NCBI GenBank assembly: GCA_003142295.1
Contig: PLLV01000217.1
Coordinates: 1-34,696 of the forward strand
Reading direction: 5' to 3'
Source: Syntrophaceae bacterium
GTDB lineage: Bacteria; Desulfobacterota; Syntrophia; Syntrophales; UBA2185
Length of the DNA stretch: 34,696 bases
The notes below the pieces were generated by a model. That model was given only the letters and a program-made list of their open reading frames with translations, did not search any database and was not told the DNA's origin. The position numbers and the translations under genes were made by a program. Below, piece after piece: positions 32,790 to 33,257 of this stretch (position 1 is its first letter; every line of letters begins with the position of its first letter).

Positions 32790-33257
32790 ATGATTGATAA
32801 GACATCTCGACGAAGTGGAGAACTTTTCAAATCAGGATTTCGTTGAGCCGAAAGCGTTTTGCTTTCCGTGGCAGAGAGCAAAAATATTCAATCGGAATTA
32901 ATTCCGAAAATCGCCAGCGGCTTCTGTGGCGGCATCGCAAGGACGAGCGGAATTTGTGGAGCGGTCAGCGGCGCTGTTATGGCAATAAGCATATTTTGTG
33001 GAAGAGGCTTGCCGGATGAGCCAATCGATAAGAGCTACGTTCCTGTAAAAAAATTAATAGAAATCTTTGAAAACAAATTTGATTCGACAAATTGCAGACA
33101 GTTGACAGGGTGCGATTTGGGGACAGAAGAAGGCAGGAAGAGATACTTTGCAGCGAATATGCTTGAGCGATGTAGAGGTTATACTGAAGAAGCCACAAGA
33201 ATGGCGATGTCAATTATTGAAGAAAAACCGCAGACGGAAGTTGTTACAAACGCATAA
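32790..33257 (+). CDS. C-GCAxxG-C-C family protein, predicted selenoprotein (TGA at 32844-32846 read as Sec)
   Basis: ATG at 32790 with SD AAGGAGA; conceptual product MIDKTSRRSGELFKSGFR[U]AESVLLSVAESKNIQSELIPKIASGFCGGIARTSGICGAVSGAVMA...NCRQLTGCDLGTEEG...ERCRGY; frame continuous with the track ORF 32859-33257. Confidence 0.88.
32857..32883 (+). promoter_or_regulatory. Putative bacterial SECIS element
   Basis: TTTTGCTTTC (32857-32866), loop CGTGGCA, GAGAGCAAAA (32874-32883): 10-bp stem with one wobble; loop begins 20 nt after the TGA and has G at its second position. Confidence 0.78.

What the first reader, a model, noticed from the sequence alone, without database searches (positions are those of the whole stretch)
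32790..33257. Hidden selenoprotein: C-GCAxxG-C-C family ORF extended through an in-frame UGA with a SECIS-like hairpin
Seen in sequence: the track calls an ORF only from a TTG at 32859. The same frame continues upstream through TGA (32844-32846) to an ATG at 32790, which has a good SD (AAGGAGA, 32777-32783). Translation gives ...GELFKSGFR[TGA]AESVLLSVAESKNI.... Both sides of the TGA match the N-terminus I remember for this family (FKxGFxCxxAVL), and the TGA falls on the first conserved Cys. Right after it, TTTTGCTTTC-CGTGGCA-GAGAGCAAAA folds into a 10-bp stem with one wobble. The 7-nt loop has G at position 2 and starts 20 nt after the TGA, which fits the usual bacterial SECIS spacing. Established knowledge: bacterial Sec insertion needs a hairpin immediately downstream of the UGA, and Sec often replaces a redox Cys; this family is a putative redox protein. 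I have a vague memory of other members being annotated as (seleno)proteins, so the novelty may lie in this locus rather than the family.
Basis: partly seen in the sequence, partly recalled or inferred. Interest (0 to 1): 0.88.

Follow-up and report, generated by a model that had tools for sequence, protein, structure and literature searches.

The report
Missed selenoprotein of known redox family
A small bacterial redox-type protein gene looks truncated because its internal UGA codon is read as a stop; the codon almost certainly inserts selenocysteine, making this an unannotated member of an already known selenoprotein family.

Summary
Window 32790-33257 encodes a 155-residue PF09719 / TIGR01909 (C-GCAxxG-C-C) protein whose residue 19 is an in-frame UGA. 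That residue is the first Cys of the family signature.

Supporting evidence:
- The genome has tRNA-Sec(UCA), selA, selB and selD, and selD itself carries an in-frame UGA.
- Among 64 distinct homologous loci read as DNA, this column is TGA (28) or TGT/TGC (36), nothing else.
- In 13 loci picked only because an in-frame TGA was reported, all 13 TGAs fall on this column.
- The 27-nt hairpin fits the bacterial SECIS model (20-nt spacing, 7-nt loop, -9.1 kcal/mol).
- Synonymous change is suppressed in the hairpin codons: 1 of 10 variable against 53 of 84 elsewhere (p = 0.002).
- TGA homologues carry such hairpins far more often than Cys homologues (p = 3e-9).

The family is already listed as selenoproteins, in two forms. 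The locus is therefore a new, misannotated member, not a new kind. Added here: one Sec column across divergent subfamilies with repeated Sec/Cys exchange, and public entries that are truncated or carry Trp there. Sec insertion is inferred, not measured; the protein's chemistry is unknown.

The parts
32777..32783 (+). Shine-Dalgarno-like AAGGAGA, 6 nt before the ATG
   Evidence: read directly
32790..33257 (+). full selenoprotein ORF, 155 residues with Sec at residue 19, C-GCAxxG-C-C family (PF09719)
   Evidence: purifying selection also on codons 1-18
32844..32846 (+). UGA codon at the first Cys of the family signature, predicted Sec
32857..32883 (+). bSECIS-like hairpin: 10-bp stem, 7-nt loop CGUGGCA
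32859..33257 (+). truncated TTG ORF that standard gene calling reports; no convincing Shine-Dalgarno seen before it
   Evidence: same truncated calls in public databases
32955..32957 (+). codon 56, second invariant Cys (CGA of the signature)
33093..33095 (+). codon 102, third invariant Cys
33171..33173 (+). codon 128, fourth invariant Cys

Best explanation
The gene is a bacterial selenoprotein gene. A ribosome that starts at ATG 32790 reaches UGA 32844-32846. The hairpin at 32857-32883 recruits SelB-GTP-Sec-tRNA(Sec), which inserts selenocysteine at residue 19, and translation continues to TAA 33257. The product is a 155-residue, mainly helical protein of the C-GCAxxG-C-C family. Sec replaces the first of four invariant Cys (19, 56, 102, 128), so Sec19 is probably the reactive redox residue and the other Cys its partners or ligands. 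Shown here: the sequence, the codon column, the Sec machinery, RNA-level constraint and selection on the upstream codons. Inferred: actual Sec insertion and the redox role. The substrate and partner are unknown.
For: PF09719 matches through the TGA at 1.2e-26, and better than the truncated ORF (93.6 against 81.3 bits). The genome has tRNA-Sec at 76.6 bits with anticodon UCA, selA at 609.9 bits, selB at 390.3 bits and selD at 389.5 bits with its own in-frame TGA. The column is TGA or Cys in 64 of 64 distinct loci. bSECIS-type hairpins at or below -7.5 kcal/mol follow 21 of 28 TGA codons against 2 of 36 Cys codons; energies differ with p = 3e-9. Synonymous variation in hairpin codons 23-32 is 1 of 10 against 53 of 84, p = 0.002. 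Codons 1-18 are under purifying selection in most comparisons among four genomes. Gene order is conserved around the gene in L050 and L051. TGA ends ordinary genes in the window (GATase 33366-34073, TraB 31040-31954), so it is not a reassigned codon.
Against: No expression, selenium-labelling or mass-spectrometry data. The local fold is not unusually stable overall (z = -0.92). Covariation in the stem is not significant: one pair with a two-sided change, no more than in shuffles. In relatives L021-L023 an alternative hairpin close to the UGA outcompetes the SECIS-type one in free folding. The hairpins of L052 and L067 fit the model poorly. One comparison of codons 1-18 (L020 against L022) gave pS 0.08 and pN 0.07, uninformative by itself.
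Confidence: 0.95

Rival explanations
1. The real protein starts at TTG 32859 and the upstream resemblance is a dead remnant left by a nonsense mutation.
For: Standard gene calling reports this ORF, and many public relatives are called with the same truncated start.
Against: Codons 1-18 evolve under purifying selection, pN mostly well below pS. The TGA is kept in four related genomes and the column is never another stop or any sense codon but Cys across 64 loci. The truncation removes the first invariant Cys. No Shine-Dalgarno is visible before the TTG.
Confidence: 0.03
2. UGA is reassigned to tryptophan or glycine in this organism, or is simply read through by a near-cognate tRNA.
For: Eighteen public relatives carry Trp at this column.
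Against: TGA terminates ordinary genes in the window. The genome has a dedicated tRNA-Sec with anticodon UCA. Where DNA is available the alternative codon is always Cys, never TGG. The Trp residues look like gene calls made under code 4, an inference because their DNA was not seen.
Confidence: 0.01
3. Assembly or sequencing error turned a Cys codon into TGA.
For: The window comes from a fragmented genome (250 contigs).
Against: The same TGA is in independent assemblies (L021/L050, L022/L051, L023), with diverged flanking codons.
Confidence: 0.01

Closest known systems
C-GCAxxG-C-C family selenoproteins, forms 1 and 2 (PF09719 / TIGR01909; MGD8741185.1, WP_012158890.1)
   Same: Same protein family, whose TIGR01909 model is named '(seleno)protein'; UGA-encoded Sec reported in two forms (PMC13188914, PMC9312934).
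   Different: The reference sequences could not be fetched, so whether form 1 or form 2 has Sec at this exact column is not tested. No annotation of this locus or its close relatives as a selenoprotein was seen.
HUGP/GUXX-star fusion selenoprotein (NF045501)
   Same: Weak similarity over the N-terminal part of the model (45.3 bits).
   Different: Far below the curated cut-off of 325 bits, and the second domain is absent here.
DVU_1555 family C-GCAxxG-C-C protein (NF045669)
   Same: Same superfamily; 57.4 bits over residues 11-145.
   Different: Below its curated cut-off of 103 bits.

Membership tests
C-GCAxxG-C-C family (PF09719 / TIGR01909) | Profile score above curated cut-off | tested here: met
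   93.6 bits against 27 (PF09719); 70.1 against 47.4 (TIGR01909)
C-GCAxxG-C-C family (PF09719 / TIGR01909) | Invariant Cys at the signature positions | tested here: met
   Columns of residues 19 (Cys/Sec), 56, 102 and 128 invariant or nearly so over 64 loci
Bacterial selenoprotein gene | In-frame UGA aligned with a conserved Cys of homologues | tested here: met
   28 TGA, 36 TGT/TGC, nothing else
Bacterial selenoprotein gene | SECIS hairpin just downstream: loop 16-37 nt from UGA, loop 3-9 nt with G in first two positions, stem 4-16 bp, MFE at most -7.5 kcal/mol (model quoted in PMC13188914) | tested here: met
   20 nt; 7-nt loop CGUGGCA; 10 bp; -9.1 kcal/mol
Bacterial selenoprotein gene | selA, selB, selC and selD in the genome | tested here: met
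Bacterial selenoprotein gene | Selenium or Sec found in the protein | not testable with these tools
   needs 75Se labelling or mass spectrometry
HUGP/GUXX-star fusion selenoprotein (NF045501) | Score above curated cut-off | tested here: not met
   45.3 bits against 325
DVU_1555 family (NF045669) | Score above curated cut-off | tested here: not met
   57.4 bits against 103

The most novel reading that the evidence does not exclude
The first signature Cys of the whole C-GCAxxG-C-C superfamily is a Sec/Cys exchange hotspot. Sec has come or gone there many times, each lineage carrying its own hairpin some 17-27 nt behind the codon. This would mark the catalytic residue of a redox fold that has no solved structure. 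In this clade the SECIS arm may also switch with an overlapping hairpin that a ribosome at the UGA would melt.
Probability: 0.35. Interest if true: 0.5.

Novelty: new member of a known kind. Interest (0 to 1): 0.33.

Why it matters
It corrects a systematic misannotation: these genes are called truncated, without their likely active-site residue, or with Trp in its place. The consistent Sec/Cys column in very divergent subfamilies points to residue 19 as the functional centre of a large redox family whose chemistry and structure are unknown.

Tried and rejected
Rfam on 32700-33300 gave only chance-level matches. selA does not separate TGA from Cys genomes, because nearly all sampled genomes have it: 55 of 58, and 42 of 42 of the better genomes. 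Covariation in the stem was not significant. Reading the rest of the window with TGA=U showed no second convincing selenoprotein by eye; ORFs that lengthened looked like neighbouring genes joined across ordinary stops. The original paper thought, from memory, to describe form 1 is not held.

Full report
OBSERVATION. The conceptual protein of 155 residues matches PF09719 from residue 17 to 141 (1.2e-26) and TIGR01909, which NCBI names 'C-GCAxxG-C-C family (seleno)protein'. The full frame scores better than the TTG ORF on both models.

MACHINERY. In the window's own genome (G000, 3.28 Mb, 250 contigs) tRNA-Sec scores 76.6 bits and ARAGORN calls it with anticodon UCA. selA scores 609.9, selB 390.3 and selD 389.5 bits, all above their curated cut-offs. 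selD begins MEEKLKIRLTETVHGAG-TGA-ACKIG, so SelD looks like a selenoprotein too. TGA is also an ordinary stop in this genome: the GATase ORF 33366-34073 and the TraB ORF 31040-31954 end in it.

THE COLUMN. I read the codon at the residue-19 column in homologous loci from relatives. Over 64 distinct loci it is TGA in 28 and TGT or TGC in 36, and never anything else. The proportion of TGA is inflated because some loci were chosen for having one. However, 13 divergent loci (L070-L082) were fetched only because the search reported an in-frame TGA somewhere, and in all 13 it lies on this column. Residues 56, 102 and 128 are the other invariant or nearly invariant Cys. Residue 19 is therefore the first C of the C-GCAxxG-C-C signature.

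THE HAIRPIN. The bacterial SECIS model quoted in PMC13188914 asks for a loop of 3-9 nt, a stem of 4-16 bp, a G in the first two loop positions (often followed by G or U), 16-37 nt from the UGA and at most -7.5 kcal/mol. This hairpin has a 7-nt loop, 10 bp, CGU at the loop start, 20 nt and -9.1 kcal/mol. By itself this is modest evidence: 1.3% of synonymous recodings do as well. Across the family, 21 of 28 TGA codons but 2 of 36 Cys codons are followed by a hairpin at or below -7.5 kcal/mol (rank test on energies p = 3e-9, not corrected for relatedness). Among L020-L023, conserved-residue codons 23-32 vary synonymously in 1 of 10 cases against 53 of 84 in the rest of the gene (p = 0.002). This indicates constraint on the RNA as well as on the protein. 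Formal covariation is not significant with eight sequences.

THE UPSTREAM PIECE. Codons 1-18 show few amino-acid changes for their synonymous changes in most pairs of the four nearest genomes: pN 0.07-0.14 against pS 0.33-0.93 in four pairs, 0.00 against 0.43 in another, and one uninformative pair (L020 against L022) at 0.07 against 0.08. The sequence just upstream has mostly lost similarity. That is the pattern of translated sequence.

DISTRIBUTION. On a quick tree of 63 loci the Sec/Cys state needs 12 changes, and strongly supported branches alone force at least 3. Repeated exchange is therefore likely, but direction and exact number are not established. Eighteen public homologues carry Trp at this column, most simply explained by gene calling under code 4. 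Most close relatives are truncated just after the UGA.

NEIGHBOURS. The order ATP synthase a subunit, TraB-family protein, MarC family protein, this gene, class-I glutamine amidotransferase, PriA-like helicase is kept in two other Syntrophaceae assemblies (the ATP synthase and PriA names are from reading the sequences, not from a profile search). None of these points to a specific partner.

STRUCTURE. AlphaFold2 gives a confident, almost all-helical model with residue 19 at the start of helix 19-30. No solved structure matches by sequence or fold. A redox role for Sec19 follows from the usual behaviour of Sec/Cys pairs and is an inference.

KNOWN OR NEW. The family has been listed as selenoproteins in two forms (PMC13188914; PMC9312934). 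This is an unannotated member. What the analysis adds is the single Sec column across divergent subfamilies and the scale of truncated or Trp-bearing annotation.

Noticed in passing
L018:1480-2538 (G000:C215): The genome's selD carries an in-frame TGA at its N-terminal GAG-U-ACK motif, so SelD is probably a selenoprotein itself.
   Followed up: partly
P0032, P0036, P0058, P0061, P0075, P0095, P0122, P0123, P0125, P0129-P0133, P0136, P0143, P0150, P0227: Eighteen public homologues have Trp at the Sec/Cys column, probably gene calls under code 4 of genes with a UGA; two more (P0134, P0135) have Leu there, unexplained.
   Followed up: partly
L021, L022, L023 just after the UGA; window 32847-32869: A UGA-proximal hairpin (GCGGAAAGC-GUUUU-GCUUUCCGU) overlaps the 5' arm of the SECIS-like stem and wins in free folding; it is weaker in the window (one mismatch). 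It could be a switch melted by the ribosome, or incidental.
   Followed up: no
L058-L063, L038 (family f29): A distant UGA-bearing subfamily (GFN-U-AESISLSF) with a different, nearly invariant hairpin CUCCUUGA-GUU-UCAAGGAG placed 19 nt after the UGA.
   Followed up: partly
L070-L082: UGA-bearing members of very divergent PF09719 subfamilies, nearly all with a SECIS-type downstream hairpin of different sequence.
   Followed up: partly
window 32790-33257 product: PF09719 has no solved structural relative found by sequence or by fold search, despite a confident predicted model.
   Followed up: yes
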